Shown here in pieces: positions 2,363 through 64,000 of a stretch of 64,000 nt of DNA. Position 1 is the first letter of the stretch; every line of letters begins with the position of its first letter. Source of the DNA: Proteromonas lacertae (Eukaryota > Sar > Bigyra > Opalinata > Proteromonadidae); the NCBI GenBank assembly GCA_002245135.1, contig NGBS01001166.1, forward strand, positions 62,001-126,000. The letters run 5' to 3'. The position numbers and the translations under genes were made by a program. The notes under the pieces were generated by a model. The model did no database searches, was not told the origin of the DNA, and saw only the letters and a program-made list of their open reading frames with translations.

Positions 2363-5300
2363 ATGAGCAGCAATTCAAATAAAAATATATGTGGAATAGA
2401 CGTTGGAAACAAATACATCGTTTTGTCTTTGTATAGTTCTCAATCCAACATTACAAAATTGTTTGAAGATAGTTATGGGAAGAAGAAGATTATGTATAAA
2501 TATATCAGTCTAAACTGAATAGAAATATGATAAGTTTTAGAAAGGAGGGAAGATGTTTCGGATTAGAAGCAATTAATAATGTATTAAAACTCTTTCTATT
2601 ATAGGAACGCAAATATTTTGAAGATACTCTACACTTTTCAACTGAGTTATTCAAGAACAAAGGTGATTTTATCCCAGAATTATCGCTAAGTTATTATTTC
2701 CCCAATTATCAAACTTTATTTACTACTAACGCTGATCAGAATATATTATTTAAAGTATTATTAATGTTTTTAGATATTTAGATACAAGTTTCAAATGAAG
2801 AGTATTCTATAGATCAATATTTCTTAATGATATTATTTTATATTAAAAGTTTGTTTGAACAACAGAATATCAGAATAGATAGCTGTATACTATGTGTTCC
2901 ACCCAAATTTGGATCAAATACAGTTAATCATATAAAGAAGTTATTAGAAACGTCCAGTATAGATATATAAACATATTATTTATTATGTATAGATATGAAA
3001 TGTGAATATATTATACCATCTTATATAGCAACAGCTTTAACGTATGGATATGAGAATAACAGTTTGTTAAATAAACAAGATATAAGATATACATTATTCA
3101 TAGACATGGGATATGTAATAACATCAATAACAGTAGTAAAATATATAAAAGGAAAGTGTAAAATATTATCCAATTCATCTAGTACAAAGTTAGGTGGTAG
3201 GATGATAGATAAAATAATTTTAGATGAATTTCAAAAAGAAATATTAGAAAAGCATACTATTAATATATATGATGATTTTGAACAGTATGTTAAAGTAAGA
3301 AATGCAGCTATTAAAGCAAAAGAACAATTGGCAGATGAAGGAATTGATAGTGTTCCAATATTGTTTGAAGGAATATTACCAAATAACGAAGATTATGAAA
3401 CAACTCTATGTCTAAATTCATTATTAGCAAAGAATGTGTTTTTATCACAACTGACTGAGCTTATTGATAAAGCAATAATTAGAGCAGGATTAATTGATGA
3501 TGAGATTAAAGTATTAATTCCTACTTTAGCAGGTGGTTCAATGAGAATCCCAGGAATTCAAAACTACATAATTCAACACTTTGAAGAGAAATATAAGAAT
3601 AAAATATTATTTAATAATACTTTAAATTTAGAGCAGAATCAAAGCTTTGGCTGTTGTTATTATGGTGCAATAATGATAAAGAGATGGGAATATGAAGTGG
3701 AAGATACAGTAGACAGTGTGAATGATAATATCATATTTCCTATGAAACAGAATGATGATGAGTATTATAAGAAAATATATAAGATTGAACTTGCATTACA
3801 ACAAAAAGATAAAGAAAAGTTTGAAACACTTGCTGAGGAACAGAAGAAGCAAGAATTGAGGAATATGCAATCAGATTTTGAAGAATCATTGTATTTTATT
3901 ATTTATATTATATTATAGAACATCATTTAAGAAAAGAGTTACATCCAAATCAAAACTATCTGCTTATAAAAATTTTGAAAAAGAAGTAACAGTAATAGAA
4001 GATAAATATAACAGTGACAAAGATAACATCAATAATTTAAAGGAATGTTCCACACTTTTATCTACAAAATCAGGCAATTTCGAGACTTTAACAATGTTGG
4101 ATGACAAATTTAATAGCATAAAGAAAGAGATAATGGAATGTGAGAATTTGATTAATTCAAATGAAAATATTAATGGTATTTCAGATTATCAGTTACAAAT
4201 AGAAAATTATAAGAAAATAATTGAACAATATCCTCAAGGTAAAATAGAGGAAAAGGACTATAAATATAAACATAAAGAATTTAGTGATATATTTGATAGA
4301 TTGGTGGAGATATTTAATAATTTGAATAAAATAATTAACCAAACAAAAGAACAGAAAGATTGTGATGATTTGTTCCATAAATTATCTAATTTAATGTATA
4401 TATTTCTTTTCATTTTCCATTTTCAATATATATATATAGTAAGAAATATGAAGATTTATTAAACGTAAATATCAATTATTCTGAAAGAGATGTTTCAATG
4501 GAATTTATAAACAATGCAAAACAAGAATTATCAACAACTTTATCAATAAATAACTACTTTGAACAGAAAACAAAGTATTTGGATATATACAGAAAAGTTG
4601 ATGATGAATTTAGAATCTTACAGTATCATTTAGGTAAAAGAGATATTAAAAAAGATATAGAAGATTTGTATGAAATAATATCAAAAAGAATACAAGAGTA
4701 TTATCAACTATTACAACAATCGAATCATATAGAAGATTATAAACACTTCAATGGCTATATTATTGATATAAAATCTAAGTTAAATCAATTAAGACAAAGT
4801 CAAAATTATGTAAAGACAAAAGAGCATTATGAAAAGATTATAAAGTCACTAGATGCAATGTTACCTCGTCTATCTGAAGCAGTTGATTATTATTTTAATC
4901 ATTTAAAAGAAAAGAAATTAGCAGTTATATTACCATTATTAAATACATTTAGATATAAAACTGAATTGATAGGAAATCATTGTCAAGAGTATAGTATATT
5001 TGTTACAAGAGCTGAGGAATATTTGAATGAACCAAATAGAACAGAGGAAGAATTTGATAATTTTATCACTCAATTAAAACATAATTTATCACAGTTGGAT
5101 AAATGGTTTTATGAATCAAAATATGATGCTGTATATATTATTGTTTTTGTTATATTATATTTTATTATTAAATAGGCGAAATATAAAACTAAACCAGAAC
5201 AAGCTGTAATATTAAAGAATCAGTTGGTTGAAATAATAAAGAAGTTTATACTACCAAGTAAATATAGACCTTTATCTCAGATGTTAGCTGATGCTTCTCA

Positions 5301-6313
5301 CTTTCTTAATGATACTTCCGAATTTTTAGATAAGTCAATCGAATCAAAAGAAAATTCCAAATTACATAAGGCAAATACAATATTTTATTGTATCACTCCG
5401 ACAAATATATGAAGCGACAATCGTAACTGATGCTGATAAAGAAAGAGAAAAACAAGAAAAGAATAAATTAGATAAATTGAAAGAAGAATATAATGGCTTA
5501 CTAAGCGTCTTATCAAAAATAGTAACAAAAATGTCATTAGGAAATGATGAAAGAGCAAAAGAAAATGAAGAGTATTTGCAAAAACTATATGATTGGGTTG
5601 CTAAAACTCATACAAAAAGTTCATATGAAAGAGAAATAAAGACATTAAGAGATTATATTTCAAGATTAGAAGAAAAAGAATCATCTAGAACTTACAAGCG
5701 AGAAATTAATGATATAAAGAATCAAGTATTTACATGTAATGATATTAAATTTAGTAATTGTTTAGCAATTAGAGTGTATGGTAATAATAATATATTGTGT
5801 GATTCTCAAAGAAGTATAATTCAAGGATATTCGAATATAATTGAAAAATGTTCATCTTGTATAGTTGTTAATGATTTTAATAAAATATCTGATTCTGTTC
5901 AAACTAAAGTTTATGGTAAACAAAATACAATTTTTAATTCAAAAGTAACAACAATTATTGGCAATGAGAATCTAATTGAAAGTGGTAAAAGTGTTGAAAT
6001 TACTGGTAATGTAAATCAAATAAATAAAAGTAATAGTGTTGTTGTAACTGGAGAATCTGTTAGGAATGAAATTAATGAATGTTATGATGTAGTAGTAATG
6101 GGTAATGAAAATTCAGTTTATAAATGTAAAAGAGTGGAAGTGAATGGAAATAATAATAGTATAGTTGAAAATGAAACAGTAGTTAATTGTGGGAAAGGTA
6201 ATGCTTGTACAAATAATAAAGATTTAACAGTAGGATCTAGTAGAAAGATAATAAATAAAGAAAATGGTGATGATGAAAATAACTCAATGATAGAGAGTGA
6301 AGAAGGTAATTAA
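2363..6313 (+). CDS. Hsp70-superfamily (Hsp110/Grp170-like) protein with C-terminal beta-solenoid
   Basis: The start ATG is at 2363. Introns of 24-45 nt at about 2491, 2602, 2760, 2961, 3891, 4397 and 5131 join the exons. The N-terminal ATPase domain shows the phosphate-1 motif as GIDVGN, then a region aligning with the Hsp110 'R.TPS.VSF...R.FG' block, CVPPKFG, IPSYIATALTYGYEN (the EPTAA region, degenerate) and AGGSMRIPGIQ (the GG.TRIP motif). The middle is alpha-helical and rich in Lys and Glu, like Hsp110 C-terminal halves. The last ~170 residues (about 5740-6250) are repeats of V-x-V-x-G-N-x-N-x-I with Asn, Ser and Cys, typical of a right-handed parallel beta-helix. The 5385-5412 segment needs a +1 shift before the stop at 5410 (or a 25-nt intron ending AAG) to continue as QIYEATIVTDADKE. 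No ER signal or retention tail is seen, so it is probably a cytosolic nucleotide-exchange-type chaperone. The role of the solenoid is unknown. Confidence 0.7.
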
Positions 6314-6451
6314 TATATAAATCTACATAATTATATATTCAGAGTTGTTATTTTAATTTAGTTTTGAGTTATTTATTAAAAATAAGTTGAATTTAAAAAT
6401 TATTATGAATAACTGAAAAGAAACGACTATATTTTCATTTTAGAATTTAAA

Positions 6452-9400
6452 ATGTCATTTTCTTTCATAAATGAAGTATTATCGTCAATTTTACCATGTG
6501 ATTGTGAAGTATGTATGCTAGTTTATTTTTCTAGATAAAGCAGAGAGTAGAAAAGAGTGTAAATGAAGTTAATTTAGTAGTTCAACACCAAGATGATGTT
6601 GAAATTGGTGAAAATATTTAATGTATGTGTAATGAAAGAAAAGAAGATATTAAAATTACTAGAGAACAACTCTTTGTTGTTAAATTGTTGTAGATCCTTT
6701 ATTTATCCTTCTTTAACATATCAATATAATGATAATAATGAATTTATGAAAATATCGCGAATATATTATTCAAGAGACTTAGAAGAGATAATTCAAAGTA
6801 ATTTATTGTCAGGAAGTGATATTTGTAGTTTGATATGTTCTCTATGTGATAGTTTGATGGTATTGAATGAATTAGATATAGTTGTTGGTAATTTGAAGAG
6901 TTCAAATATAATATATGAAGAAAATGGTGAAATAAAATTATGTGATTTGTTCTTGAATTTGTTGAGAAAAGAAGAAGAAATGAGAATGTATGACATCTGC
7001 TTCAAAAGCCCAGAAGAGTTGAATGGATTAGAATGTAATGAGAGAAGTGTGATATGGTCAATTGGCTGTATATTATATGAAATGATTTGTAAGAAATTAC
7101 CATTTAATGAAGATAATAATATGAATAAAACCCTGAATAATATCATTAGAGGTAGATTTTGTGGTTATATGAATGATGATGATATTATGAAAGAAATTGT
7201 TGGAAGAATGCTGAAAGTGAAGAATGAAGATAGAATGAGTTTGAAAGAGTTGAGAAAAGAAATGATAAAAGTGAGTGAAATATTGAAGACTGACAATAAT
7301 TTGATGATATGCAATGAAAGAAAAGAAATGTTATATAATAATGATAAAAATATAATAACACTCCCGATAATCTATCTACCAAAGTATTATCTTGAGAGTA
7401 ATAAATGGAAAGAAATTCGAGATAGATTGATAGAATCTTACAACCGTAAAGCTGATGAAAAAATATTAGGAATATTATTGATAATGAAATTAGACAAAGA
7501 AGATGAATCAATAATAAACAAACTGAAATTCCAAATCCATCATAAATGTAAAGAAAAAAGAAAGGAATGTTATTTAGATAAAATAATATTTAGTAGCCAT
7601 AGTACATTTGATAATGATTTAATTGTTAGTTCATGGTGTATTTGTTTATGTGAAGAAGGAGTGAACTATTTGTTCAGAATAATGAAATTAATTAATCCAA
7701 CAAAACTTAAGTTTAGTATGGCATTCAAATATCAATTATTATTTGGATTTAGTTTAAAACACTTATCAAACCTACAAGTATTAGTTTTAGAATCATGTAG
7801 TCTTTCTTTTCATTTCGTTCAATCATTTGTTAAATCAATTCCATTTTTGAAATTGAAATTTGTAAATCTTCAATGTATTTTTTTCAATTTTTCGCTTATA
7901 ATTTGAATTAGATAATCCAATTGGTTTAAAAGGATTCAGATTGTTACTTCCATATTTACATTTATTAATCAACAAATACGATATATTAAATCTTGAAGGA
8001 ATGAATTTAGATGATGAATCAATGATATTATTATCAGAAGAACTATATAAATATGCAAATCTTGCATGGATTAATATTATGCACAACAAAAATATTCATT
8101 CAAAAGGATTAAAAGCTTTATTCTCCAAATTTCCTATTTCAAAAATAGTATTTGATTTTAAGGGAAGTGAAGAATTACTGATTGACAAAGACATTCCAGA
8201 ATTAATCGAATACATCAAAAACGAAGATGATTATGAAAGTGAGTATTATGATGATATTCTGAATGACTTAGATCTGAATAATTTAGAAATAGATGATGAT
8301 TTTATCAAATCATTTATGTCTTTAAGATCAAATGAATTAAAGAAAATAAGAATGTTATATTTGAGTAGTATTATTTGATATTTCTCTATTATTTAGATAA
8401 TAAACTAACATATAATAGTGTAGAAATACTGATTAACAATTTGACTATATTTTCAAATCTAAAACATCTTGCATTAAACGAAAATGAAATAGGAGATGAA
8501 GGAATGAAATTATTATCTCCACATTTAGATCTGTTAAAAGACTATGATAATAACATTAACTGTTCAAGTATAATTGTAATTTTTAATGTTATAAATAGAA
8601 ATGGGTTTATCTTCAACTGGATTAAAACAATTAATAAGTGGTTTAAAGAATATAAATGGAAAGATTTTACTTGATATAAGTGAAAATAGTATAGATTCAT
8701 CAGGAATAGAATATTTGATAAATTATGTGAAAGAGAATGGCAATACAGAAAAGTTAAATATTCACAGTATTATTATTTGCTCATATATATAATAGATAAT
8801 CCAATTGGAAATAAAGGATTAAGATTATTATTGAATAACTTAAATATTTTAATATTAATAACTAATTATCCATATGAAATGGACTTAAGCAACATATCAA
8901 TAGATGATGAAAATGTAGTGTTATTATTAGATAAACTAGAATCTTCAGAATGTAACACAATCAATTTAAATGGAAATAATATCAGAATGAATGGATTAAA
9001 ATTACTTCATTCTAAATCATTAGAAAAAGAACAATATCCATTTATAAAGATGAAGAATTCTTCATGGAATGTTGAAGAATTGGATTATTATTTGGATTAT
9101 TGTATAAAAAGAAAAGAAAATATGGATATGAAAAAAAATATGATTTTTCAAGTATAATAATTATATTTTTAGTGAAATAGATATGAATCTGAATGATTCT
9201 CACATTTCATTATCAAAAATTGATATATCTAATAATAGAATAACTTCAAAAGGGTTGAAAGAATTTACAGATTCTTTAACAAAAGATATATATGATGCAT
9301 CAATATTTAATAATCCAATTGGAGATGAAGGAGTAGAGCTAATTTGTGAACATTATAGTATATTTGTTAATTTTTATCATGATGATGATAATGTAAAATA

Positions 9401-9701
9401 TAAACATTCGTTAAATCTTTCAAGTAATATATATGATATTTTTATTGTTTGAATAGATATAGGAATGAGTGAGAAAGGATTGAAGATGTTAATAGAAAGA
9501 TTAGATAAATATAGACCATTAAATAAGATTAATATATCAGGAAATGAATTAAATGAAAGAGAATTGAAACTGATGATAGATAATAGAGAAGCATTTGATG
9601 ATTTAGAAGAATTAACAATAACAGTGAAAGAAAATATTGATCAATCAGAATTAAAATCATTTTTAGAAGCATTTTCAACAGTAAAAATAATCAAAATCTG
9701 A
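6452..9701 (+). CDS. Pseudokinase with C-terminal leucine-rich repeats
   Basis: The first exon starts at ATG 6452 (MSFSFINEVL) and a 26-nt intron follows. A +1 break is needed near 6601-6621 to reach the kinase-like frame (CVMKEKKILKLLE). The kinase fold is recognisable: DIVVGNLKSSNIIYEENGEIKLCDL sits at the catalytic loop and DFG region, CFKSPEE matches APE, and VIWSIGCILYEM the F helix. The HRD Asp is replaced by Asn (VGNLKSSN) and DFG reads DLF, so catalysis is doubtful. The second half has about eight LRRs of the ribonuclease-inhibitor type (NNPIG..G...L, L.L..N.I). Introns at 7875-7911, 8365-8396, 8568-8598, 8767-8795, 9152-9180 and 9424-9456 all interrupt the repeat at the same place with the same phase. 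The 9131-9138 run of eight A seems one base short: with nine, the frame gives KKKYDFSN joined to MNLND across the intron. Probable signalling or scaffold protein. Confidence 0.65.
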
Positions 9702-9956: not shown

Positions 9957-12900
9957 TTAATCAACTCTATCTAAAGCAGTCAATCCTTTCTCTGCTGCAG
10001 TTTCTACCAACACTGTTGTAGGTTCTTGAATTAATATAGCTATAAGAACTGAACCTAATAGAGAAATTGCCCAATACTGACTTTGTTCTTTTGTATATGT
10101 TAAACCATAAAGTAATGTAACAAATGTCATAATAACAACATAACAGAACATAAAGAAATTTGCTAATACTACCATGAAAGCTCTCATCTTTCTTGATCTT
10201 CTCCATTCCAAATATTCCTTCTTTCTTTTAGTTCGTACTAAATTGATTGATTTCCTTAAAGCAAGTACTATTTTCAATGTTACTGAACCATCAGGATCAA
10301 CATCACTGTAATTGGTCATTGTTGTTGTATTGGCTGATATTGTTGTAGTATTGTTTGCAGTATCATCTTGCTTTATACTACTTTCAGCAGTTACATCTAA
10401 ATCGGGTATAACAACTTCAATTTTAAATGAAATATATGCAAATAGTAATACTATCTTCACTAATAATATAAATGAAGCAATAACGAAATAAGTAACATAT
10501 AAACCAGACCAATCATTTAATGTATCATGAAGTCTTGTTCTACATGATGGAAATCCTCCTTGAGCTAATATTAATGGAGTTGTACAATCTGTTACATTAT
10601 AATCACTAATTGTATTATAACCACAACATTCTAAGTTTTTTTCGACATATACTAATAATTCGTCAAATCCTGGTGTAGTTGTCCATGTTTTCCATATTGA
10701 ATAGGTTGATGATGTAGTGTCATTCCATAATACACAATATATTACAATTGCTATAATATAAACCATCAATAATAATATGTTGAATATAATCAATGAAGAT
10801 ATTTGACATTTCTTTTGATCAGATACAACCACAAATAATGAAGAAGTTTCTAACAAAAATACCACAAATAGGAAAGCAAACACTATACTGAAATAGCCTG
10901 ATGGTAATAAACATAAAAATGTTACAAAGAAAATCGCATTTAATATATCATATGCTAAATCTGTTGTTATTAAACCAGCTTGTAAATAGAATAAAGTACT
11001 CTTTGCATGTCTTTTAAAGAATCCTTTTAATTTCTTCCACATTGTAATAATACCTCTAACCTTTCGTTTAACAGTACCAGATGAATAATTATTAGCATAT
11101 TTATATAAATATGGTAAAATGATTGTTGCTGGTAACATTGCTAATGATGAAGCAATCATTGTAAATGCTAATTGTCCAGCATTTCTATCTGATGTTGCAT
11201 ATAATCCTGCATTAACAGCACAACTAGTCAATACTTCACATAATAAAATAATAACTCTTTGATGTCTATTTACGATTGTTAATTCTTTAACTGTTGTACA
11301 TGATGGAGATAACCAACTGTGATGATTTCTTATGTTGAATATAAATTGATCAGTAAAATCTTTTTCTCTTCCTGTTTCCCAATCTTCATCATCTACAAAA
11401 TACCCAAATCTCATGAATGAGAATGACTGCCAATCTTCTAATCTGTCATATTCCTTATAATCATAACATTTATATGCCATTATTAGAATAATACCAATGA
11501 ATAGTATTACGCATGTAACAATTAATACAAATGTATAATCACCTTTGAAATCAATCTTTAAAGCAGCTTCATTCAAATTACCAACTTCATTTATTTTTGG
11601 AGAAATATCTTTTTTATTTGATGTAAATTTATTCTTTATTTGTGTTCCAGCACAAATCAAATATCTAGAACCTCCATCATTAGATATAATACCAACTACC
11701 ACTAATTTCATTTCTCCATTCAAAGTGTCATTAGTTGGAGTACATTGAATATGTATTAAATCAGCATCTTGTGTTAATCTTTGAAGTATATAAACTACTG
11801 AAGGAGTAGTGCCAGTACTAGCTTTAGATCCTCTTGTATTTGGTGAGTAAACTTCGATTGTTACATAATTTGAAGTAATATTTTTAACAATTTGTGATGA
11901 ATCTGGATTATCTAACCAACTAGTGATTATTATAGTAGAATCTTTATTTTCAATAATCTTTTCACTACTAATATATACTGTTGATTCTCCTACATATCTT
12001 TCTGGATCGATTATATAAGATTCATCAGCTTTGATAAATTCAATACTCACTGCAGATGATGTAACTGTTAGTGGTGGAGCATATAATGATTTAGAATACA
12101 TCAATCCTATTTGTTTGTACAAATCTGGATAATTTTTACCATACTGTTCAACAGGTCTATCTACATTACTATCATTAGTAAGTAATAACTGTTGATTCCA
12201 TTCATTATCTATTATTAATGATGTTGTTTTTACAACATTCACAACCAAATCACTTGGTATTTCAATCTGTTCATTATTAGTATTTTTGTCATTTACTATA
12301 TTTCCTGTTTCTGATATAATATGGTGCAATAAATCATTGATTGTCTTTACATCATCTTCATTGATATTAGTTGGATATGTAATTAATGAATTCAATGCTT
12401 TTGACTGTAATTCAAAGCCACCAACTATTGTATTTTGATAGATTGTCTCATTCATTGCTTTAACTATATTACTCTTAAATGTAACAAGTGAATTATAATC
12501 ATTTTCATTGTATTGACATGCTGAACCTTTAAACCCATTATTACATTTACAAATCGAATGACAATTAGGATCAGACTCTCCACAAAGATCTTTTGTTCTT
12601 ATACATTTTCCATTTCCAGAACACTCACTACCAACTAATTTTCCAGTTCCTTCTGTAATGTATTGTCCTGGACATAATTTTGGAGGTGATACACATACAA
12701 CTGTACAATTTCTATATTCTGCTATATCACCATCACAGGTAGTATTACTATCAGTTGATAAACATTCTCTATATCTTGACTGAACTCCTCTTACTGCATC
12801 TCCATTATACACTCTACAATAACCACTACATTCAGTCCAATTACTCCAATTACTCCAACTTCCGTTTGTATTTATTTCTGTGTTACAAAGACTAATATCT

Positions 12901-15900
12901 GCTGGCTTTTCTTCTACACCAACTTCACATGCTTTTCCTCCATATTGTGATTCATTGACACATATATAATAAGTTGATTCTATACATCCAGTTTCATTAC
13001 TATATTTGTATTTCTTTTCTGTTCTTGATTTACCATCGATTGGAATATGATTTTGACAAACTTCTCCATAATACTCTTCAGTACAATTACAATAACCATT
13101 AATACAAGTTCCATCATTCATACATTGATCATTTCTTTCACATACGATATTCAATAGTGTTGAGAGTGTTGAAACTTTTACATAATAAGTATCATTATTA
13201 TTATTACTATTATCAGAGGATATATAACTTGATTTTAATTCTTCACTAAATGCTCCTGTTGAATAGATTGGTAAATCACTAACTGATTTAGTAATTGAAC
13301 CATATTCATCTTTAATAAATACAACTAAATATAACTTAAATCTATCAGTAACACTTCCAACTGGTAATACACCTTTATATTCTTGATTTTCACTAAAATT
13401 TGATTGTAAATATTGTATTTCATTATCAATCATAACTGCAAATCTATATTGCATATTTATAGCTCTCCAATCACCAGCTGTTATTGTGTATTCTTCTGGG
13501 AATGTATAATTTGTTGAACTTCCCTCCACAACAATTGATACTGATTTATCAACAACATTAAACTTATAATATACAGTAACTTCAGAATCTCCTCCATCTG
13601 TTATTGTCAAAGTTAAATATTGATCTTCAGTTGATGTAATATTCTCACAACTAACATATATTGTTGGTGTATTATTCTTCGATATTATTGGAGTATATAT
13701 AGAATCATCAGTAAATGACCAATAAAAAATCATTTCAGTTTTATCTACATCATCTGGTGTTATTTCTGCAGTTAATTTGAATATATCAGTTGGAGCAAAT
13801 GTATGTTTATCAGGATATGATATTATATTAACATAGAACATTATACTATCAACTCTAATAATGAACTTATAACTTGCTGATCTTTCAAATCCATCATTAA
13901 CAAGTAACTTCTGATTCATATTCACCTTCTTCAAGTATAAGACTTTGTTCCACTGATGAAAAAACATTACTGGTTTTAGTATTGTATTCATTATTACCAA
14001 TTTTCCATATATATTTATATGTACTACCTAAATTATCTTCATCTACAACTGTTGCTGTGATGTTAATATCATCAGAATAATTGTATAATTGATAATAATT
14101 CTTATCAATTGTTACTTGTAGTGAAGAATATGTTACTTCAATATCCATTGTTTGACTTTCTTTAACTTCACCAGCAGTTGCATTACACATAATTTGATAT
14201 TTACCAGCTTCTAAACTACGTGGATTAATCTGCAAGATTTTATTATCATCATTAAAAACTAAACCACTTACTTCCTTACCTTCTTTATTTGTTACTTTCC
14301 ATTCTATAGTAATTGGTGTTACTGTTGCTTTACATGTTTTTAATTCAACATTTGCATATATTCTGTATGTTCTTGATCTTAAATAGTATTTTTCACTCTC
14401 TGGTTTACTCTCTTCTAATTCCATAAGTATGAAATCTTCTTTACTATAGAATACATTTGAATTAACACTTTCTACATCATGCAAAAATGATGCAACTGAT
14501 AATTTGATGTTATAATTTGTATCATTATTAAGATAATATGGTTTAATTAACCATTCACTTGAATCACTAGAGAATGATTGAGCATTTGTGTCAATATTAC
14601 TAATATTCCATTGATAATTGACTGGATGTGATATATCACTAACATATGTAACAGTACTTGTTAAATTCAACACTTCACAAGCCAATACTTTTGGTTTTAT
14701 ATTAATCTTTGGATTTAATAATGGTAATCTACTTGATTTAACTACAGTATAAATACCAAAACCAGTCATTTGAATATTAACAACTGGATTTGGAATTCTC
14801 TTTATATAACCTTTTTCTAGCACTAATTCACCATCTCTAGTAATAGTAAAGTTTTCACCTAATGATATTACCATATGAGTAATATTAACTATTTCACATT
14901 TTCCATTAACACCAAATTTATTACCGTAATCTTTAAATAATTTACAGTTTACATCATCTTCTAAATCTTCATATTCTTTTGTGAATAATACATCTATTGT
15001 TTGACCATCTATAAATTCAGCACTTTCTATCATTGGAGTCATATATGTAAATCTATAATTTCCTTCAGTAGTTTTCTCTCCTAAGTACGATTTTCTAATG
15101 AAATTTGGTTTGATTGTCAAATTGGTTGTTGGTGTAAAAAATTTGTCATAGAAACCAATATTTTGATATGTAATTTTGAATGTTCGATTATTTATCCAAC
15201 TACAACTTGGAGTAAACACATCAGCCAATCCTCCAACATCAATTTCATATAAATTATCACAATTATCTCCACTTTGAACATATCTATCATTTACATAACA
15301 TGGCATATCAAAATCAACATAAATAGCTGCTTCATAATCACTCACATTTACTATTAATACTTTAGGAGCATCACTTGTATCATATTCAAGATTGGATATA
15401 TTATAATTAGCTTTACTTTCTATTTCATATAAATTCTCGCTCTCTGGATCTTGTTTTGCTGTATGAGTTAATAATGTTGTCCATTTTTCATTTTCTTTGT
15501 TATTCTTTACTTCTATTTCTGCTTTGAAACTATTCTCTTTGTTCAATGTAACAATGTAAGTTGATAAATTGAATAATTCTGATTTTTCAATTGTTATATT
15601 AATTGGATATATTGGATTTCCTGCTACTGTAACATTATATGTTAATGTCTTATTGTTGTATGGATTAAATTCTAATTGTGGTGGTTCAAATGCAACTTCT
15701 GGATAGACATAGTTATGGAATATTATTGGATATTTATATGTTGGTTTTTTAAATCGATGATCTTCTGAATTGATTGTTATTTCCAAATTCTCATTCACTA
15801 CAACACCTTCTTCCATTTGTTCTTGTGAAACAGTTATATTTGCATATGTTTGTGTACTATTTAATATAATTGTATCTTCTGAGCATATTAACTTTTCTGG

Positions 15901-21900: not shown

Positions 21901-22048
21901 CCTTGCTCCTACTGTTTGCTAATATTGAATCTACAATTTTTGATTCAGATGTAACGACATTTGATAAAACTCCTGATATTAAGAATATAACTAACCAATT
22001 ATAAGAATGGTATGGTATACCTGTGACAAAAATCAAACACTTTTTCAT
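9957..22048 (-). CDS. Giant polycystin-1/REJ-type membrane receptor with beta-helix ectodomain
   Basis: About 4,000 residues. ATG 22048 begins MKKCLIFVT, and splicing a 30-nt intron gives a clean signal peptide (MKKCLIFVTVIFLISGVLS). Further introns lie near 21851-21880 and 21568-21600. The N-terminus has a putative-Ig repeat (PSGFQFNENTGNIDGIPEE). Then come three related modules of about 450 residues, each starting near EEWYNL.(F/Y)SGN or an equivalent and rich in GLFGSV...N(T/S)TISYSFV, a beta-helix/GLUG-like pattern. Next are beta-sandwich/REJ-like and PKD-like regions, EGF-like cysteine modules (CMNDGTCINGYCNCTEEYYG), a thrombospondin-1 repeat (WSNWSNWTECSGYCR), and another EGF. A juxtamembrane region leads to about nine transmembrane segments. 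The first intracellular loop and following text (HHSWLSPSC..., VNRHQRVIILLCEVLTSC) resemble the polycystin-1 membrane part. Near 10,620 a CCGYN...PSC loop between two helices looks like a tetraspanin large loop. One surplus base near 13902 breaks the frame within SEVT/VNDGF. Confidence 0.7.
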
Positions 22049-29973: not shown

Positions 29974-30038
29974 GATAAAAAACGAATTTAAAAGAAACAA
30001 TTTAAATTTTTAAAGATCAAGCCAAGCCATATTTGAAA

Positions 30039-50440: not shown

Positions 50441-53400
50441 TTACAACAGAGACTCATCTCCTTCACAAAGCAGTAGAGAAGAGAATTGTTGGATATAATA
50501 GTTGATATAATCATCATCATCTGTTCCAAATATACTTGTCAACTCATTCTTTACAATTGGATCTTCACAACTTGGAACAATTCCAGATTGACTTTTGTCT
50601 TTGATATATTCATAAGCAATTTGATATACCTCACCACCCAAATATTCTTCAAGTCTTGCAGATAAAATAGACGAATCTTCTGCTTCTGGTTGATTAATAT
50701 ACTCAGTTTGTTGATAATCATACTCATTTCCATAATTCTGGCTATAATCCTGATATTGTTCTTGATACTGTTGTGATTGTTGTTGTTGTTGTGGATAATA
50801 CTGTTGATATTCATCAGGATAACTTTGAGGTGAAACATATGAATTATTACTATTATAATTATTTTGTTCATCTTCTTGAGAATCTGAATAATCTATTGTT
50901 AAATTCTTAGGAATATCTACTGGATGTAGATGTCTATCATTTTTCCTTTGTCTTATCACTGTTCTATCATAGTTCATACCTACATCTTCATCACGACTGT
51001 AACTTCTATATGATTGAGGTGTAATGTAATTATTATTATTATTATTATTATCTTCTTCAATATCTTCATCCACATCCATATCATCATCATCATCATCATC
51101 ATCGTCATCTTCACTATCATCACTATCTCCTTCATAATCATTATGTAGTGATTCATATTTCGGTCTTTGTTCGTGTAATGGTAAAGGAGAAGATGACTGT
51201 ATTCGTAACTTTGAGGATGTGATAGATGATGAAGATGATGATGGTGGTGGTACTTTGGGTGGTAAATAAGATGGTGATTGTGGTGGAATAGGTGGTAATG
51301 ATGAATAACTGTCAACTGATACTTTGTCTTCACTATCAACGTGATTTCTTGTCTCTGGAATTTCATCTTCTGAATAAGTGTCATCTGTATCATCTGCTGT
51401 TATATCAGTTTCATAATTCAGTCTCTTTTTTGATGATGATGATGTTTTTATTATTTCTTCACTATTATTATTATTATTAACAATATTCCTTTTATTTGAG
51501 ATACTTTTTGTAGTATTAACTTTTGGTGAAATTCGGTCTTTTTTAGGTGTTGAATTATTGATACTTTTATTGGAGGATTTTCTTACATTACTACTCTTTG
51601 ATTTAACACTCAATCTCTTCTCCTCTTCATAATCATCTTCATCATTATTAACAACATCCTGTTGTTGTTGAACAATATTTCTACTATTCCTTCTACTACT
51701 ACTGGACTTCGCTTCTTCTTTTATAATTACACTGCTTCTTTTACTGGATGTACTTTTTACACTCATTCTTTTCTTCCTACTGGTACTGTTATTGTTAATT
51801 ATCTCTTCGTCATTTCTGGATGAACTTCGGCTATGGTGGATAATACTTTTTACACTCTTTACACTATTCCTTTTACTACTACTACTGCTGTTTTTAAAAC
51901 TAATCCTTTTCTTATCTTTTACTTTCTCTCGTTCTTCTTCTTCTTCATAATCATCATTTTCACTTTCATCATCTTCATCTTCACTGATTGTTTTGGTTCT
52001 ATTAATCCCCACTGATAATCGATTACTACTACTTTTAGCATGAACTATTTGAGTCCCTTCTTGTGAATCTAATAATGCTAATTCTTCATCTTCATCATCA
52101 CTTGTACTATCTTCTGTACCAATCTCTTCTTTCAATTGTTCACATTTCTCTTTTGTACGTTGTAATTCTTCTCTTAATTTCTTCTCTTTTTGCTCTAATT
52201 CATCATTTTCTATACTATCTATTATACAAGGTGCCATTCCTATTGCCCAACTATCACTGGCTTGATCAGGCTTGAATGGAGGAGAATCTGAGGAACTTCT
52301 TTCTGAATTTGATACAAATTTCATTGAAGCTATAATATAATATAATATAATTATATATATGAATATACATCTTGATTTATCAATTGCTAAACTTGGTACT
52401 GGAGCTGGTATTGATACTGGTTCTGGTAATCGTGATGATGCTGGTCTTATATTCCTCTTTTGTGATTTCTGTTGAATTTGTTTCAACTTTGACTCTGGCT
52501 TGGGACTTTGTGATTTTATCTCTCGTTTCTTTATCTTCTTTCACTCTTACTAATGCTTGTTTTATTATATTTGTCTTTTCTTTAGCAAATGATAATTCAT
52601 TCTTCTTTTTATCAATTACATTCTTTGGAATCTTTTCTCCTGGCTTTGGTAATGGTCCTGGCAATATTGATTGTGATTCTAATCGTTTATCTAATTCATC
52701 CAACATACCTAAGTGATTTAATTGTATTTTCAATGAAGAAATCATTTCATTATTATCATCAGAATACATATCTTTTACTGCACCAAGTATTGCATGTTGT
52801 ATCTTTATTGTACCATCTCCAGAGAAATCAGCAGGCCTTGTAGCTAAATCTACTAAATAATCTAATACACGAGGTTTAATAAAATCACTTTTTAATACAT
52901 CAGATAAAGCTGGTCTTTTGGTTGGATCAACGGCTAATAATTGTCCAATTAAAACACTCAATTCTTTACTATATTTACTGGAAATTGGTTGAAACTTACC
53001 AACTGTAACAATACGACTTAAAGCAGCCAATGAATTAGCTTCAAATGGATGATGAAGTGCAATCAATTCATATAATATACAACCACAACCCCACACATCA
53101 ACTTTAAAATCGTAAGGCTTATTCTCAAATACCTCTGGAGCCATATAATACGGTGTACCAAGTGCAGTTTGTGCCATTGCATATGTACCATCTAAGGATT
53201 TGGATATACCTAGATCTCCAACAACCAATCGACCATTTCCTAATAAAAACATGTTTTGGCTCTTTATATCTCTATGTAGTATTTTATGTTCATGAAGGTA
53301 TTCAATACCTAGTAACATTTGTACAAAATAGTTGAGAATTACAGATTCTTTGATTGTTTTATTCAGTTTCTTTGCTCTTTTGTATATTGCTGATAGATCA

Positions 53401-53727
53401 CTTCCATCACAGTACGTCATGCATATACATAGATAACTACCATCTTTGGTCAAAAAGCTTTCCTAATAAAATATAGATATAATATTCATGCCTTGTATCC
53501 AATAATATTTGGATGTGATAAGCTTTTCATTAGAGCTATTTCTTTTTCACAAGTACGCTTTTCCGGAGTAGTTATGCCTTCCATATTGATCATCTTAAGA
53601 GCATAGTATTTCTTTTCTTTTATATGCCTAGTTAAATAGACCTAATTGAATTAAATATAATGAGCTATACATCTCCATATGATCCCTTACCCAAAGTTCT
53701 AACTTTTTGATAATTTCTAATAGACAT
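50441..53727 (-). CDS. NEK1-type NIMA-related protein kinase with long acidic tail
   Basis: ATG 53727 (MSIRNYQKVRTLGKGSYG) to TAA 50441, about 1,050 residues. Introns lie near 53643-53671, 53463-53491 (a GC-AG intron) and 52330-52369. The kinase is complete: GKGSYGDVY, YALKMI, HRDIKSQN, GDLGISK (DLG in place of DFG, as in NEKs), TALGTPYYMAPE and DVWGCGCILYEL. NEK1-like kinases regulate cilia and centrosomes. The tail is Ser/Asp/Glu-rich with coiled coil and polyQ, and ends ILSARLEEYLGGEVYQIAYEYIKDKS...GD(E)SLL, like the conserved NEK1 C-terminus. One surplus base near 52506-52509 separates the kinase frame (KIT) from the tail frame (SPKPESKLKQIQQKS). Without skipping it the protein would end 40 residues later, in a poor-quality frame. 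Confidence 0.8.
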
Positions 53728-54963: not shown

Positions 54964-57900
54964 ATGAATAGAACAGCATATAATGATACACATATGTTAA
55001 ATTCAACATCAAAAAGCGGTAATCGTCAAAATAGAAGTAACACCTTAGGTGAATCTACTATATACCCAAGATCTGCTGATACATCAGTGTCATCAGTATA
55101 AATATGCTAATGTTTTATTTATTATAGTCAACTATACAAGAAGCTAACAACATTAGTGGTTACAATCCTTCAAACTCATCATTTACCTATAATAAAGACA
55201 GTCAACTATCAAAATCATCATCAAGATTTGAGATGAATGAATTGCTAAGGCAACAATACACGAAAATAAAAGAATTAAGAAATGAGAATAATCGATTAAA
55301 AGCAGCTAAAGATTCATTCATCCATTCAGTAACTCAATTAGAACAAGAGAATCAGAATTATATGATAAATAATGAACAACTAATAGAAGAGAATAAGCAA
55401 CTCAATAATCAAACTATTCAACTACAAAATGAATATGATATTCTCTTTAAAACCAACCAGCAATTAATGGATGATAATAAAGTATTAAAAAAACAGAATG
55501 ATACATTAAATAAAGAGAATAGAAGACTACTTCAAATGAGTCATGGTACAGAATCAACAATGATTGATCAAAATGCAGATTATGAAAAAACAATGAGAAA
55601 TTTAAGCAATGAAAATCAAAAGTTTAAAACATATATATCACAATTAGAAGATGAAAATACCAAATTAAACAAACACATTACAAGTTTAGAAAAGACTTTA
55701 AATGGTGCTGAAATAAATCAAGTGAATGATTTGAAGATTGATGAATATAGAGCTGCATTGAATAAAGCAAAAGATAAGATTGAAAAGTATAGAAATATTA
55801 CACAAAAACTAAAAGATAAAGTAAAAACATACCAATTAGTATTTTTTATATATTTTATTTATTATCATTTTATTTAAATAGAAATTGAAAGAAGTAGAGA
55901 GCCAATCAATTAATAATAAACACAAGTCAAATGGATGATGATACACTCTCTGAAACTTCAACAAGATCGAATATAGTAAGTGAACAAGAAGAACAAATCA
56001 ATAAATATAAAGATCAAATCAACAAACTAATCGATGAGAATAAGAAAATAGTTGAAATCAACAATTCTAATCAAGAAACAATAATGCAACAAGGATTAGA
56101 AATAACTGAATATATGGTCCAAATAGAAGAAATATCTCAGAAGTATGAGATATTAGTTCAAGAGTTTGAAGAATTAAAAGAACAACAGAAACAAGACGAA
56201 GGACAAGAAAATGATCCAAATAATTCAGTAATTATAAATGTAGATCATAATCCATCATTGTCATATTTGATTTACAATATGGTTGAGTTGTATGAAGAAG
56301 AAAGAAGAATAATTGAAGTATATAATGATGAAATATCAATAAATGATAATTTGAAAGAAGAAAATATAGAATTAAAAGAGCAATATCTTCAGCTAGATGA
56401 GTATCAATCTATTGATATGTTAAATGAAGAAAGGGATGAAGATAATAATGACTATATTCTTAATGATATTATTACAATTGAAGAAATAGATGACAGAGAA
56501 GAGTTAATAACTAAAATACAAATATTAAATGAACAAAATGACCAATTGCAGAAATTGATAGATGTAATTAAACAAGAAAATGAGAATTTGGCAAATAGAA
56601 CTAAAGATGCTATTGAAAAAATAGAACAATTAGATATAACTGAATAACTCTTTTAGAAAAAGAATTCAAACAATGGAAAGAGACTATTCTTCTTTGGTTC
56701 AAAATAATCAAATTCTAAAGAATGAAAATGAGAAATACAAATTCGATTTAGATAAATATGAAGAGATGGAAAATGAAATGAGAATAATAAAAGAAGAATA
56801 TGAAAAGATAAAGATAGATAATGATAATATAACAAAAGAGAGAGATACATATTTAGAACAATATAATTCGCTAGCAAATTACATTCACTGAAGAACAAAA
56901 GAAGAAAGAAGAGGAAGAAACAAAATCAGTAGAAAATGAAAACAATAACAACAATGATGTGTATGATATGATGTCTCAGATTATATCATACATAAATGAA
57001 GTATATACAAAGAATGACCAAGAATTCAATAAACTATTTGAAATCATTTCCAAACTTTATACACAATATTATGCCTATGAATATTCGCAATGTGATTATT
57101 TAGTTTTCCAACCAAATGATAATCTCAAGAAAGAGAATGGCGAAGAAGATGATTCTGATGATGAAAAAGAGAAAATAAATGAAGATGAATATTACAAATT
57201 ATACAATGAACATCAAGCAGTTATTAATCAATATGATGAACTAAAATTAGAGAATGAAAAGCTGATTGAAGAGAGAAAGATGGTTGATATATTGTGTGAA
57301 ACAACATCATCAAATATGAACAAATCAATTGAATATATCCATATTTTATTAACTGCACTTCATTATCCATCAGGTAATATATATAGAAACATATACTCTA
57401 CATTCTTAAGAGATATTGAAGATAAATTGTTATATTATATTGACATATTTGATATTAAAATGGATTATAAACAAGAAGAAGAGATATGTGATAGAATAGA
57501 ATCAGAAATAACAGTTTTGTGTGATAATTTCATAATTTATCCAAGAGAAAATAGAAAATTGGATATAATGAGAAATGAAGTGATAAGTCTAAACAATAAC
57601 AATAAAAATAATGAATTAGTAATTTCAAAAACAAGGAGATATGTTAATACTCCATTTCCAAAGCCAAAATCTAATAACAATAATAATAGTAGTTATTTGA
57701 ATTCAACAGTAATACCAAATAATACATCACTTTCTAATTCAATAATAATGGATGATGATATTGAACAATATAAGAATAGATACAATGAAATATACAACAA
57801 TTTAGAATCTCAGAATACAATTCTTCAAGCAGAATATTCAAATGTAAAACAGATGAATAATGAAATCTCAAAGACTATTCTTGAATTACAAACACAATTA

Positions 57901-60900
57901 TATGAAGAAAAATCACAGAATTATATACTGAATTTGAGTTTATCCAACCTTCAACTTGAATATAACAACTACAAAACATTTGTAGCTCAAAATAAAGAAA
58001 TATTGGACAATAAAAACATTAGTGATGTGGTTATGAAATATAGAGATTTAAATATACAATATCAATCAGTAGAAATAGAAAAATCAATATATCTCAAACA
58101 AATTGAAGAATATAAAAACAGATATAGCATAATTGAAAAACAATGTCGACTATTCCAAAGTAGATTAGAAGATAATACAAAGAAAGTGAGAATAACTGAT
58201 GAAAAATACACAAAATTATTAAAGAAATATTTGAAATTAAACACTGAGAATAAACTGATGTTAGACAATTATAAATCATATCAAAAACAACTTACAGCAT
58301 ATAATCGTCAGAATTCAGAATTATTGAAAGAGAATAAAGAATTATTAGACAATAGAGTTGAACTATACAAAAGAATATCTCAATTTGAAGCTGATATTGA
58401 TTATTATAAAGATACTAATGCAGTAATATCAAAACAATTACATACATTATCAATTTCAAATAACATAATTAGTAGGTCAAATTATACATTACAAAACCAA
58501 TACTTTGACTTATTGAATAATACAATTGACAATGATTCAATCAATCATGAAGAACTCTTTAGATATGATGTAATTCATTTTGATAGAGTGAATGAAGAAT
58601 ATAATTTGGATGATAATTTATCTTATCATGTTACAGATTCAAATGGTTTATTCTATGGTGGTTGTTATTTGCAGTATGAAGAGTATAATGCTTTGCTATT
58701 AGAATTCAAAGAAGAAGAAAAAGAAGAGGTTATTCTGTCAGAAGAGATATTTAATGATTTAGATTTAATAATGGAAGAAGAAACACTTCAAAATATAAAT
58801 TACATGGTTGATTCTATATGTGATAATTCTTCTAATAATTCAATTGTAAATACTGATAGAATAAATGTATTATCAGATGCTATATCCGAAGAAAAGGAAG
58901 AGATAAATGTTGCAGAATCTTCAAATTTGAACATAGTTTTCATGCCTTTTGTTTCAATAGATCAAGAAAAGAATAAAGAAATAACTTTAGAATCATTTGA
59001 TAATATTGAAATGACATATGATGAGAATGAAAGTGAAGATATATTGAGAAATGAAACAGAAATATTCAATTATGAAGATAAGATAAAAGATGAAGTAAGT
59101 ATTATTCCACAAGAAACAATTCATGAAATAGAAAGAGAAAATGTTGAATTAACCAAATTAGATTATGAAAGTATAGTTTTACAATCAGATAAAGAGGAAT
59201 TAATACTAATGGATACAGGTGATTTAAATGTAATAAACATTGATAATGATAAAGTAACAGAAGAAGAAGATGTGAAGACTGAGGTAGTAGAAAAGAGAAA
59301 TGAAGATGTTTTAGAGGTTATTTCATCTGAGATTGTTAATTATAATTACATATCTGAAGAGAATACAGTAATTCAATCAAATATTATTGGTGAATTAATG
59401 GACTATTCATCAGAATATATCGTTTATGATAAACTAGAAAATATACAAGAAGATGAAGAAGTGAAAGAAGAGAATGTAATTGTAAATGAAGAAATAGGTT
59501 GAATATATAAATGATGAGGTGAATGAAGTTGTTAGTTTAGATATTGTAAATAGTATAAATGATATAGTATCTGATATGTTAATGAATGAAATTGTGAGTA
59601 GTATAAATGATGTAGAAAGTGAATATGTAAGTAATGATAAATTAGAGAGTATAAATGATGTTCAATCAGAGATAGTGAAATTAGAGTTGATTGAAAGTAT
59701 AAATGATGTTGAAGTCAGAGATTGTAATTTCAACAATAATTGAGAATATAAATGATATTCCATCTGAAATTGTGAAACTAAATGTAGTTAATAGTATAAA
59801 TGATATAGAAAACGAGTTTGTAATTACAGATAGTAATGAAAGTATAAATGACACTCCATCCGAGATAATGAACTTGGAGATAATAGAAAGTATAAATGAT
59901 GTAGAGAATATAATAACAACGAATGAAATTGTGAATGGAATAAATGATGTCAAAAGTGAATATATAACAACAGATTCAATAGAAAGTCTCAACGATGTTG
60001 AAAATGAAATAATGAAGTTAGATATGATTGAAAGTCTTAATGATGTTGAAAATGTGGTTGTATCACTTGATGTTGTGAATGATTTCAATGATGTTCCATC
60101 AGAATTTATCGCAACTGAAACAATCGAAGGATTATTTGATGTAGAATCGGAAGTGATTACATCTACTCTAGTTTGTAGTTTGAATGATGTTGCTTCAATA
60201 TATATTAAAACTGATAATTTGGATGGAATAAATGATGTAGAAAGTGAAGTAATTCAATATAATAATGTTGAAAGTATAAATGATGTTGAATCAGAAGTTG
60301 TTACATCTGTAGAAGTGAATAGCATAAACGACGTTGAGTCTGTTTTCTATAGAACAGAATATATTTATGGAATAAATGAAGTAGCATCTGAAGTATTGAA
60401 ATCAGATTTAGTTGAAAGCATTAACGATATGGAGAATGTTGTACTAAGTAATTCAACTGAATGTATAAATGATGTAGAAAGTGAATATGTAATTAATGAT
60501 AAATTAGAGAGTATAAATGATGTTCAATCAGAGATAGTGAAATTAGAGTTGATTGAAAGTATAAATGATGTTGAAAATGTAGTTATCAGTGATTCCATTG
60601 AAAGTATAAATGATGTTGAAAGTGAGATTGTAATTTCAACAATAATTGAGAATATAAATGATATTCCATCTGAAATTGTGAAACTAAATGTAGTTAATAG
60701 TATAAATGATATAGAAAACGAGTTTGTAATTACAGATAGTAATGAAAGTATAAATGACACTCCATCCGAGATAATGAACTTGGAGATAATAGAAAGTATA
60801 AATGATGTAGAGAATATAATAACAACGAATGAAATTGTGAATGGAATAAATGATGTCAAAAGTGAATATATAACAACAGATTCAATAGAAAGTCTCAACG

Positions 60901-63039
60901 ATGTTGAAAATGAAATAATGAAGTTAGATATGATTGAAAGTCTTAATGATGTTGAAAATGTGGTTGTATCACTTGATGTTGTGAATGATTTCAATGATGT
61001 TCCATCAGAATTTATCGCAACTGAAACAATCGAAGGATTATTTGATGTAGAATCGGAAGTGATTACATCTACTCTAGTTTGTAGTTTGAATGATGTTGCT
61101 TCAATATATATTAAAACTGATAATTTGGATGGAATAAATGATGTAGAAAGTGAAGTAATTCAATATAATAATGTTGAAAGTATAAATGATGTTGAATCAG
61201 AAGTTGTTACATCTGTAGAAGTGAATAGCATAAACGACGTTGAGTCTGTTTTCTATAGAACAGAATATATTTATGGAATAAATGAAGTAGCATCTGAAGT
61301 ATTGAAATCAGATTTAGTTGAAAGCATTAACGATATGGAGAATGTTGTACTAAGTAATTCAACTGAATGTATAAATGATGTAGAAAGTGAATATGTAATT
61401 AATGATAAATTAGAGAGTATAAATGATGTTCAATCAGAGATAGTGAAATTAGAGTTGATTGAAAGTATAAATGATGTTGAAAATGTAGTTATCAGTGATT
61501 CCATTGAAAGTATAAATGATGTTGAAAGTGAGATTGTAATTTCAACAATAATTGAGAATATAAATGATATTCCATCTGAAATTGTGAAACTAAATGTAGT
61601 TAATAGTATAAATGATATAGAAAACGAGTTTGTAATTACAGATAGTAATGAAAGTATAAATGACACTCCATCCGAGATAATGAACTTGGAGATAATAGAA
61701 AGTATAAATGATGTAGAGAATATAATAACAACGAATGAAATTGTGAATGGAATAAATGATGTCAAAAGTGAATATATAACAACAGATTCAATAGAAAGTC
61801 TCAACGATGTTGAAAATGAAATAATGAAGTTAGATATGATTGAAAGTCTTAATGATGTTGAGAGTGAAATAACAACCTTACCATTAATCGGAGAAGTAGT
61901 TGATCAACCATCTATTATAATTCATTACAATACTAACACATTACAATACATTCCAGATGATAAATTAATAGCAAATGAAATAATTACATCTCTTAATGAT
62001 GAAGAATCATCATATTCAATTTCTTTTATAAAGAATATGTTAGTTGATACTGAATCTGAATTGGTTGTAGATAATGCTATAACATTAACAACAGATACAT
62101 CATCATTATATATCACTTATAAAGAATCAGATTACATTCATTATGATAATAATATTCTTACATCAAATACAATTGATATGATAAAAGAAGAATCTGAAGA
62201 GTATGTTGTATGTGGTAATGAATCATTAATTTGTAAATCTCACAAATGTGAAAGTGTTATAATGAAAGAAATTGCTTTAGAATATAAAAGGAAACTTCAA
62301 AAAACAGATGTACAAGTAAAAATAGATTATCCTAATCAATCAAAATATACATTAGTTCGAAAAAGAGATATTGAAACAATGTATCCCAACAAAAAGTACA
62401 TTTCAAAAATACAAATTCCTGTAATGACAGTAGCAGCTCATAAACCATATATCCCTCTTAGACATATATCCATATCCAACTATGCTATTAATCTCTAATT
62501 ACAAAAATTATAAAAATGAGTATATCCTGTTAAAGCCAAAATATGAAACTCTCAAACTTAACAATGCTACTAATATGGATACAATTAAACAACTTCAATA
62601 TCAAATAGAACAGCAAAAAGATGCTATCAGACAATTAAACGAAGATAGACTGAATATGGTTAGTAAGACTGAATATAACTCTTTACTACAAAGAATTAGA
62701 GAGTTGGAATTACAACCAATGACTAAAACTTTTCCTGAAACTCAAATAATGTCCTCTTCTTCTGCTTATACACCACAAAATTCACATTCAATGTCTAAAT
62801 CCATGTATACTCAATTAGAACCAAGAATATATAACCCTACATATTCTTCAAACAATAGTCATTTAGTAAGTTCTGATATCATTCAGCCATCATCATTTTA
62901 TGATACTCCCAACAACTCAAGAGTGAGATCTTCACAACCTCTCAACAAATCCTTTAATTCTTCATTTCAGCAATCTATTCAATCAATAGTAAAAGAAACT
63001 GTTGAACAAACATTACAAGACATGGATTTGGATATATAA
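54964..63039 (+). CDS. Giant coiled-coil protein with 16-residue SINDV repeats
   Basis: ATG 54964 (MNRTAYNDTHMLNSTSKSG) to TAA 63039, about 2,650 residues. One 32-nt intron lies at 55096-55127 and one near 55840-55880. The first 1,500 residues are a long coiled coil with heptads of Leu, Ile and Asn/Gln/Glu, as in basal-body and centriolar filaments. Residues encoded at 59550-61870 are tandem 16-residue units of the form E-S-E-(V/I)-x5-(V/L/I)-E-S-I-N-D-V. A last helical part and Ser-rich tail follow. The frame needs a surplus base skipped at about 55905-55938, 56645, 56889, 59495-59502 (or a 22-nt intron ending at 59495), 59711-59720 and 62490-62498. The downstream reading frame always resumes with the same repeat or heptad text, so one gene is likely. 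Function is unknown. Confidence 0.6.
59718..61861 (+). repeat. Perfect 906-bp tandem repeat (2.4 copies) inside the coiled-coil gene
   Basis: Copies start at 59718, 60624 and 61530 (spacing 906 in both cases) and the third ends near 61861, where ESLNDV continues with a different sequence. Copies 1 and 2 look identical by eye, including all codons. Each is 302 codons made of 19 smaller units, seventeen of 16 residues and two of 15. A diverged partial copy (59608-59711) lacks one 15-residue unit and ends where the frame breaks. The identity implies recent duplication or gene conversion, or a long-read assembly artefact. Confidence 0.85.
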
Positions 63040-63275
63040 TATAAAATTAAATGTATGTTGATATTTTTTAATAGTTACGTAATTATACCTTTATTTAATT
63101 TTTCTTTTTGACTTTGCTGTTATAGTTCTACATAAACAAAAATGTTTGGTGCGAAAATGTACATCCAATTTTTTACTGTAATTACATAAAATGTGCAAAA
63201 ACCCCCTTAAATCTTTTGTTTTTGTTAGTTAATCAAAAAATTAAGTCTAATAAAGAGCAGCCCAAGCCATTATTT

Positions 63276-64000
63276 ATGAGTAAATCAACGATTGTGGAGC
63301 ATATGATAGATACTCCAATTGAGGACCAAGTAAGTTAACTAATTTAATTTAATAGCTGTCACCAGGTGATATAACAGCACAGATTAGAAGCGACAAAGTT
63401 CTTTCACCTATATCGATAGTATATTATTTTTTTAAAGCTCATTATAGCCACCTGCGTTAAGTATTAAGTCAAATGCTATACTGACTGACGGTTCTTCGAA
63501 TACAACCAATCTATCACACGTAATGACACCTTTATCTCATCCTAGCGTATAAATTGCTCCTTTATATAATAGTTGATACTGAGACACTTTTTTAAACCAC
63601 CAACGTTTGAAGTATTTTTTAAATATTTATATATAATAGAAAAAAGAGGATATAGCAGCCATTAAGATACAATCACATTTTAGAAGGCATAGAGTTCAAA
63701 ACTATTTTCTACAACATGAAATTATGCGAAGAGTATAATAATTCTATCATGCACATATAATTTCTATAGAAGCAACTCGAGTTGTCAATCAAACATGAAG
63801 ATGTACAACTGAGGTTGTATATGAAGATGAATATAGAATATGACGTATTACATGACCACTTTATACAGGACAATAAAGGAGATGGGATCTCTCGTAAAGG
63901 AATATTTCAATAGAAATACATTAGATAAAAGAATTGAATATTTAGAGGAAGTATTCTTCAAAATAACTGATACTGAAGATGTAAACTATATAACAAAAGA
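63276..64000 (+). CDS. IQ-motif protein, 3' end missing
   Basis: ATG 63276 (MSKSTIVEHMIDTP) running off the right edge. Introns of 25-37 nt lie at about 63329, 63418, 63547, 63612 and 63736, with GTAA/GTAT...TAG ends. Residues after the Ser/Thr-rich start include an IQ-like helix (IAAIKIQSHFRRHRVQNYF) followed by coiled coil. One surplus base near 63874-63876 is needed to continue (KEMGSLVKEYFNRNTLDKRIEYLEEV). No family is recognised. Calmodulin binding is inferred from the IQ helix. Confidence 0.55.

What the first reader, a model, noticed from the sequence alone, without database searches (positions are those of the whole stretch)
5224..63915. About nineteen +1 frame breaks against two of the other sign
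In genes read on both strands, I find single surplus bases near 5390-5412, 6601-6621, 13902, 22786-22792, 25759, 27466, 28559, 28869-28877, 29015, 31241-31252, 31534-31551, 52506, 55905-55938, 56645, 56889, 59495-59502, 59711-59720, 62490-62498 and 63874. Each restores a conserved or heptad/repeat frame if one base is skipped. Only 9131 and 27205-27229 go the other way. Random indels would not be so one-sided. The skip is not simply at the stop: homology places it upstream in TTL (29015), KIF6 (31241-31252), NEK (52506) and 27466. Density varies strongly (six in the coiled-coil gene, three in TTL, none in GCP4, vigilin or AFG2). Possible causes are insertion-biased consensus error, gene decay, or widespread +1 recoding.
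Basis: partly seen in the sequence, partly recalled or inferred. Interest (0 to 1): 0.75.

Follow-up and report, generated by a model that had tools for sequence, protein, structure and literature searches.

The report
Assembly indels posing as frameshifts
The many one-base reading-frame breaks in this protist DNA are best explained as leftover single-base errors in the genome assembly, plus a few short introns, and not as a new way of reading genes.

Summary
The one-sided excess of +1 breaks is real in the given sequence but is most likely an assembly artefact. Of 19 reported +1 sites, two (22786-22792, 25759) disappear with short GTAT...TAG introns. Seven of the other 17 are fixed as +1 by relatives or paralogs. 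A scan with equal penalties of the 17 as +1. Of the two reverse sites, 9131 looks -1 against a paralog; 27205-27229 is -1 or two +1.

Recoding is not supported. Relatives (92% and 77% identical) have uninterrupted proteins across six sites, where the extra base lies two to six codons before the zero-frame stop. Of 38 paralog loci, 17 read at least 2.9 kb without a frameshift call; 15 others carry calls of both signs (15 '+1', 7 '-1').

Indel error is shown elsewhere in the assembly. Four contigs holding one locus differ by one mismatch column but 26 single-base indels; one copy has ten insertions and no deletions, another eleven deletions and no insertions. A per-contig sign bias thus arises without biology. 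The window's own sites were not checked against reads, and no second copy of them was found.

The parts
28421..29200 (-). Tubulin-tyrosine-ligase-like gene with three +1 breaks (around 29011-29017, 28866-28875, 28551-28562); a relative has one open frame across all three
   Evidence: Relative P0027 (261 aa, 92%, 93%) continuous across all three; tblastn of P0027 switches frame there; coordinates
54964..63039 (+). Coiled-coil/repeat gene with +1 breaks at about 55915-55930, 56636-56647, 56871-56880, 59491-59501, 59712 and 62457; intron 55839-55881
   Evidence: Relative P0147 (992 aa, 77% over 55% of the query) unbroken across the first three; scan calls five of the six; repeats; coordinates
6463..9701 (+). 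Kinase-domain gene of a family with about 40 copies; +1 at about 6599-6621, probable -1 at about 9130-9142 (eight A), several 29-37 nt introns
   Evidence: Pfam, paralog search, frames and alignment, tblastn, scan
30015..32049 (+). KIF9-like kinesin with introns 30237-30264, 31157-31186, 31416-31443 and +1 breaks near 31247 and 31546
   Evidence: Kinesin motor hit; three-frame view; scan; coordinates
50441..53453 (-).
   Evidence: Pfam Pkinase; three-frame view; scan
9957..22132 (-). Probably one very long gene with a single +1 break at about 13902
   Evidence: ORFs of 2566 and 1347 aa overlap there; three-frame view; scan
2992..6313 (+). Gene with three introns and one +1 break at about 5390-5412
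   Evidence: three-frame view and scan
25500..28366 (+). Gene with introns 25588-25624 and 25694-25723 (which remove reported site 25759), a -1 or double +1 at 27205-27229 and a +1 at 27466
   Evidence: three-frame view, scan, exon joining
22773..22800 (-). 28-nt GTAT...TAG intron that removes reported site 22786-22792
   Evidence: exon joining gives one open frame

Best explanation
The window is part of contig C375 of a 50.2-Mb, AT-rich eukaryote draft assembly. Most of the breaks are single-base insertion errors left in the consensus, of the kind known from long-read assemblies. The errors are patchy and can be of one sign within a contig or stretch, probably because such stretches rest on few reads with a common indel bias (inferred). 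Shown: other contigs of this assembly carry indel-only discrepancies between copies of one locus; relatives lack the extra base at the six sites they cover. Inferred: that the window's own extra bases are such errors, and that long reads were used.
For: Four contigs holding one locus (C798, C405, C386, C385) have 1 mismatch column in 3,724 aligned columns but 26 single-base indel events by my count against the majority: C385 10 insertions/0 deletions, C386 0/11, C405 1/4, C798 none; 25 of 26 alter the length of a run. C778/C158: no mismatch, three single-base indels, and one 931-column gap. Upstream on C375, contig C725 differs by 34 mismatches and 21 gap openings over 6.2 kb; 17 of the 18 one-base gaps lie in the first 2 kb. 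There the scan reads one 2,654-nt coding stretch without a frameshift call in C375, but three pieces in C725. Relatives have continuous proteins across six window sites. Among 38 paralog loci the scan gives 15 '+1' and 7 '-1' calls, and 17 loci total at least 2.9 kb of coding with no call. The ligase-like gene with three breaks is 92-93% identical to its relative; unbroken vigilin is 88-89% identical to its own. In a long-read T. [quoted passage not shown]
Against: No reads were available. No second copy of the window's broken sites turned up: searches of 3000-6500, 25000-33000, 55500-60000 and 60000-64000 returned themselves as the only long near-identical match apart from internal repeats. 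Three longer queries (1-12000, 50000-64000, 12000-25500) did not list the window itself, so they are uninformative on this, and sites 13902, 22786 and 52506 have no usable test. Some extra bases need not lengthen a run (28869-28877, 56889), unlike 25 of 26 events. Not all contigs are bad: C195/C581 and C796/C48 show 10 and 38 mismatches with one and no single-base indels. The relatives are other species or strains, and P0027, P0147 and P0001 need not come from one organism, so true recent insertions in this strain are not excluded. No tool names the sequencing technology.
Confidence: 0.91

Rival explanations
1. Widespread +1 ribosomal frameshifting (recoding) that skips the surplus base during translation.
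For: Strong excess of +1 over -1 in the window; protein frames continue and are conserved on both sides of the six sites covered by relatives.
Against: Those six sites are not at a stop codon and share no obvious codon; the relatives are unbroken there; 17 of 38 paralog loci read at least 2.9 kb with no call, and -1 events occur as well; nearly identical copies differ at such sites.
Confidence: 0.02
2. Real recent insertions: pseudogenes or polymorphic frameshift alleles in this strain.
For: Relatives are only 77-93% identical, so strain-specific insertions are possible; contig pairs with true-looking SNPs exist.
Against: Breaks hit several unrelated conserved genes at once while protein conservation stays high in the one case compared; the sign bias toward insertion is hard to get from mutation (inference); indel-only copies show that errors of this kind exist in the assembly.
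Confidence: 0.05
3. All breaks are unrecognised short introns of length 3n+1.
For: The scan uses many short GTAT...TAG introns (26-73 nt, some of them false), and two reported sites vanish with them. Paralog L037 lacks two of the family's introns cleanly.
Against: At the six sites placed by relatives the aligned protein leaves room for one base, not for an intron. Of the 45 intron lengths printed, 17 and 17 leave remainders 0, 1 and 2 (counted by hand), so there is no 3n+1 excess.
Confidence: 0.02

Closest known systems
Residual indel errors in long-read assemblies
   Same: Single-base indels without matching substitutions break open frames; patchy density. PMC8445201 (abstract and passages seen) reports that 98% of error-suggesting variants in a long-read T. 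brucei assembly were indels or complex; PMC8812927 (abstract start in search listing only) says residual errors are most commonly homopolymer-length errors.
   Different: Here the bias is almost wholly toward insertion in the window, some extra bases need not lie in runs, and the reads were not seen.
Euplotes +1 ribosomal frameshifting
   Same: Many genes need a +1 step to be read to the end; neutral gain of sites means relatives can lack a site.
   Different: In Euplotes the shift occurs at internal stop codons, predominantly after AAA (PMC10235951, abstract and passages seen). Here six of six located sites lie upstream of the stop, and -1 events occur elsewhere in the genome.
Short spliceosomal introns
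   Same: GTAT...TAG introns of 28-37 nt explain two reported sites and frame changes in the kinase family.
   Different: They do not explain the six sites placed by relatives, where a single base is surplus.

Membership tests
Euplotes-type +1 frameshifting | Shift takes place at an internal stop codon | tested here: not met
   At 6 of 6 sites located by relatives the extra base lies two to six codons before the zero-frame stop; the other sites are not located precisely
Euplotes-type +1 frameshifting | AAA (most often) before the stop | tested here: not met
   No common codon at the six sites, read by eye
Euplotes-type +1 frameshifting | Shifts only forward (+1 or +2) | tested here: not met
   Single-base deletions in contigs C386 and C405 and -1 calls among paralogs; a single -1 frame change could also be +2, but the deletions could not
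Euplotes-type +1 frameshifting | Peptides or footprints through the sites | not testable with these tools
   No such data at hand
Residual assembly indel error | Copies of one locus differ by indels without substitutions | tested here: met
   1 mismatch column against 26 indel events in four copies, elsewhere in the assembly, not at the window's sites
Residual assembly indel error | Extra base absent from close relatives | tested here: met
   6 of 6 sites covered by P0027 and P0147; the other 11 sites are not covered by a relative
Residual assembly indel error | Reads disagree with the consensus at the sites | not testable with these tools
   No reads at hand
Decaying genes (pseudogenes) | Relaxed protein conservation | tested here: inconclusive
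   Ligase-like gene with three breaks 92-93% identical to its relative, vigilin without breaks 88-89%, which speaks against decay; the coiled-coil gene is 77%; the relatives may be different organisms
Short introns | GTAT...TAG stretch whose removal restores the frame | tested here: met
   Met at 22786-22792 and 25759 only; not met at the six relative-placed sites

The most novel reading that the evidence does not exclude
A subset of the extra bases is truly in the DNA of this protist and is read through by a +1 step that needs no stop codon, in a lineage that has only recently begun to accumulate such sites.
Probability: 0.02. Interest if true: 0.9.

Novelty: not a real feature. Interest (0 to 1): 0.08.

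Why it matters
If true, stop-independent +1 reading in many genes would be a second violation of triplet decoding besides Euplotes. As it stands, the finding is a caution: a strongly one-sided sign of frame breaks can come from assembly error, because in this assembly the sign of the indels can be fixed contig by contig, and gene models from it would need polishing before use.

Tried and rejected
Rejected: introns as the general cause (two sites only); recoding (relatives, paralogs, position relative to stops); gene decay (conservation, weakly tested). I first took 9131 for a plain intron (so written in notebook entry 1) and 27205-27229 for two +1 shifts; the frames of paralog L016 make 9131 a -1 next to an intron, and 27205-27229 stays open. 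A first idea that every extra base lengthens a run did not hold: at 28869-28877, 56889 and possibly 59711 it need not. I looked for a second copy of the broken stretches in the assembly; none was found with the usable queries. Three longer queries did not list the window itself and are not counted as negative. A first tblastn script gave nothing because of a wrong option and was run again. Limits: the codon-model scan was trained on the window itself, misses some breaks (paralogs L046, L048 and L052 are broken or 41 but have no call) and replaces some by false introns, so its counts are rough. Only 20 of the 31 listed ORFs were scanned against Pfam.

Full report
Setting. The window is G000:C375:62001-126000 of an unnamed 50,220,264-base, 1,181-contig eukaryote assembly, 24-30% G+C, with a tRNA-Pro.

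The sequence has short introns. The kinase-domain gene at 6463-9695 has about 40 copies in the genome (lower bound). I fetched 38 loci including the window's own. Alignment of 14 of them shows stretches of roughly 25-50 nt beginning GTAT and ending TAG at places where frames change; copy L037 lacks two of them cleanly. With equal penalties for +1 and -1 and with such introns allowed, a codon-model scan reads most longer genes of the window through introns of 26-73 nt, some of them false. Two reported sites disappear: 22786-22792 by a 28-nt intron and 25759 by introns of 37 and 30 nt.

What remains is one-sided. Seventeen reported +1 sites are left. Seven are fixed by outside evidence: 6601-6621 by the paralogs, three in the ligase-like gene by relative P0027 (two also by P0028) and three in the coiled-coil gene by relative P0147. 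59711 is supported by the frame of the repeats around it; two later copies of that stretch, at shifts of 906 bases, carry no break but differ in sequence at the very site. The scan of the 17 as +1. It misses 29015 and 55905-55938, where it prefers introns against the relatives, and 63874 at the window end. Its total is 17 '+1' and 2 '-1' calls, with three '+1' calls off the reported list (9155, 30008, 47491) and one '-1' call (47956) opposite a gene on the other strand; at a stricter penalty the total is 6 to 1, and at a higher intron penalty 21 to 2 with four intron regions misread as +1. Site 9131 is a probable -1 against paralog L016, in or near a run of eight A. 27205-27229 is undecided.

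Relatives are unbroken. A search with the read-through ligase-like protein found P0027 (261 aa, 92% identical over 90% of the query), continuous across the three sites. The coiled-coil query found one relative only, P0147 (992 aa, 77% over 55% of the query), continuous across three sites. Placing P0027 and P0147 back on the window with tblastn shows the frame changes. At these six sites the extra base lies two to six codons before the zero-frame stop. The relatives are not the same strain: the unbroken vigilin is 88-89% identical to its nearest relative P0001. The broken ligase-like gene is thus at least as close to its relative as an unbroken one, though the relatives may be different organisms. 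Eleven of the 17 sites are not covered by a relative.

The same assembly contains demonstrable indel errors. C798, C405, C386 and C385 hold one locus: 1 mismatch column in 3,724 aligned columns, but 26 single-base indel events by my count against the majority. C385 has ten insertions and no deletions; C386 eleven deletions and no insertions; C405 one insertion and four deletions; C798 none, and its first exon matches in one open frame. 25 of 26 change the length of a run. Real alleles would hardly show that ratio (inference). C778 and C158 repeat the pattern on a smaller scale (three single-base indels, no mismatch, one 931-column gap). Other pairs, C195/C581 and C796/C48, show 10 and 38 mismatches with one and no single-base indels, so quality is uneven. 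Upstream of the window, C725 differs from C375 by 34 mismatches and 21 gap openings over 6.2 kb; 17 of the 18 single-base gaps lie in the first 2 kb. There the scan reads one coding stretch of 2,654 nt without a frameshift call in C375, but three pieces in C725.

Genome-wide recoding is not supported. Of the 38 paralog loci, 17 total at least 2.9 kb of coding with no frameshift call; 15 carry 15 '+1' and 7 '-1' calls; six have shorter coding and no call. The count includes the window's own copy, with two '+1' calls, one of which is the misread 9131 region. In tblastn of the first exon, 18 of 38 copies match in one open frame, 5 in one frame with stops, and 15 in more than one frame. Eight of the 15 change frame around residues 390-425, where a further intron is likely (not tested); the other seven show seven +1 and four -1 changes. 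Euplotes, the known case of mass +1 reading, shifts at stop codons, predominantly after AAA (PMC10235951, abstract and passages). That is not met here.

Conclusion. The breaks are most likely residual insertion errors of the consensus, with the one-sided sign explained by a per-contig bias that this assembly shows elsewhere. The part not shown is the read evidence at the window's own sites; no second copy of them was found with the usable queries. Literature: PMC8445201 (abstract and passages) describes long-read indel errors breaking genes in a protist; PMC8812927 was seen only as an abstract start in a listing.

Noticed in passing
window 6463-9701; L016-L053: A family of about 40 kinase-domain genes with several short introns downstream of the kinase exon; one copy (L037) lacks two introns cleanly, which would suit a study of intron gain and loss.
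   Followed up: partly
window 59801-60900 against 60707-61806: A stretch of the coiled-coil gene recurs at a shift of 906 bases with 100% identity over 1.1 kb; a very recent duplication or an assembly effect.
   Followed up: partly
   Followed up: no
L040 and L041 (contig C681): Two inverted copies of the kinase gene on one contig, 96% identical, one of them broken more often.
   Followed up: no
window 55839-55881: A 43-nt intron in the coiled-coil gene has no counterpart in the protein of the relative P0147; intron loss or a spliced source.
   Followed up: no
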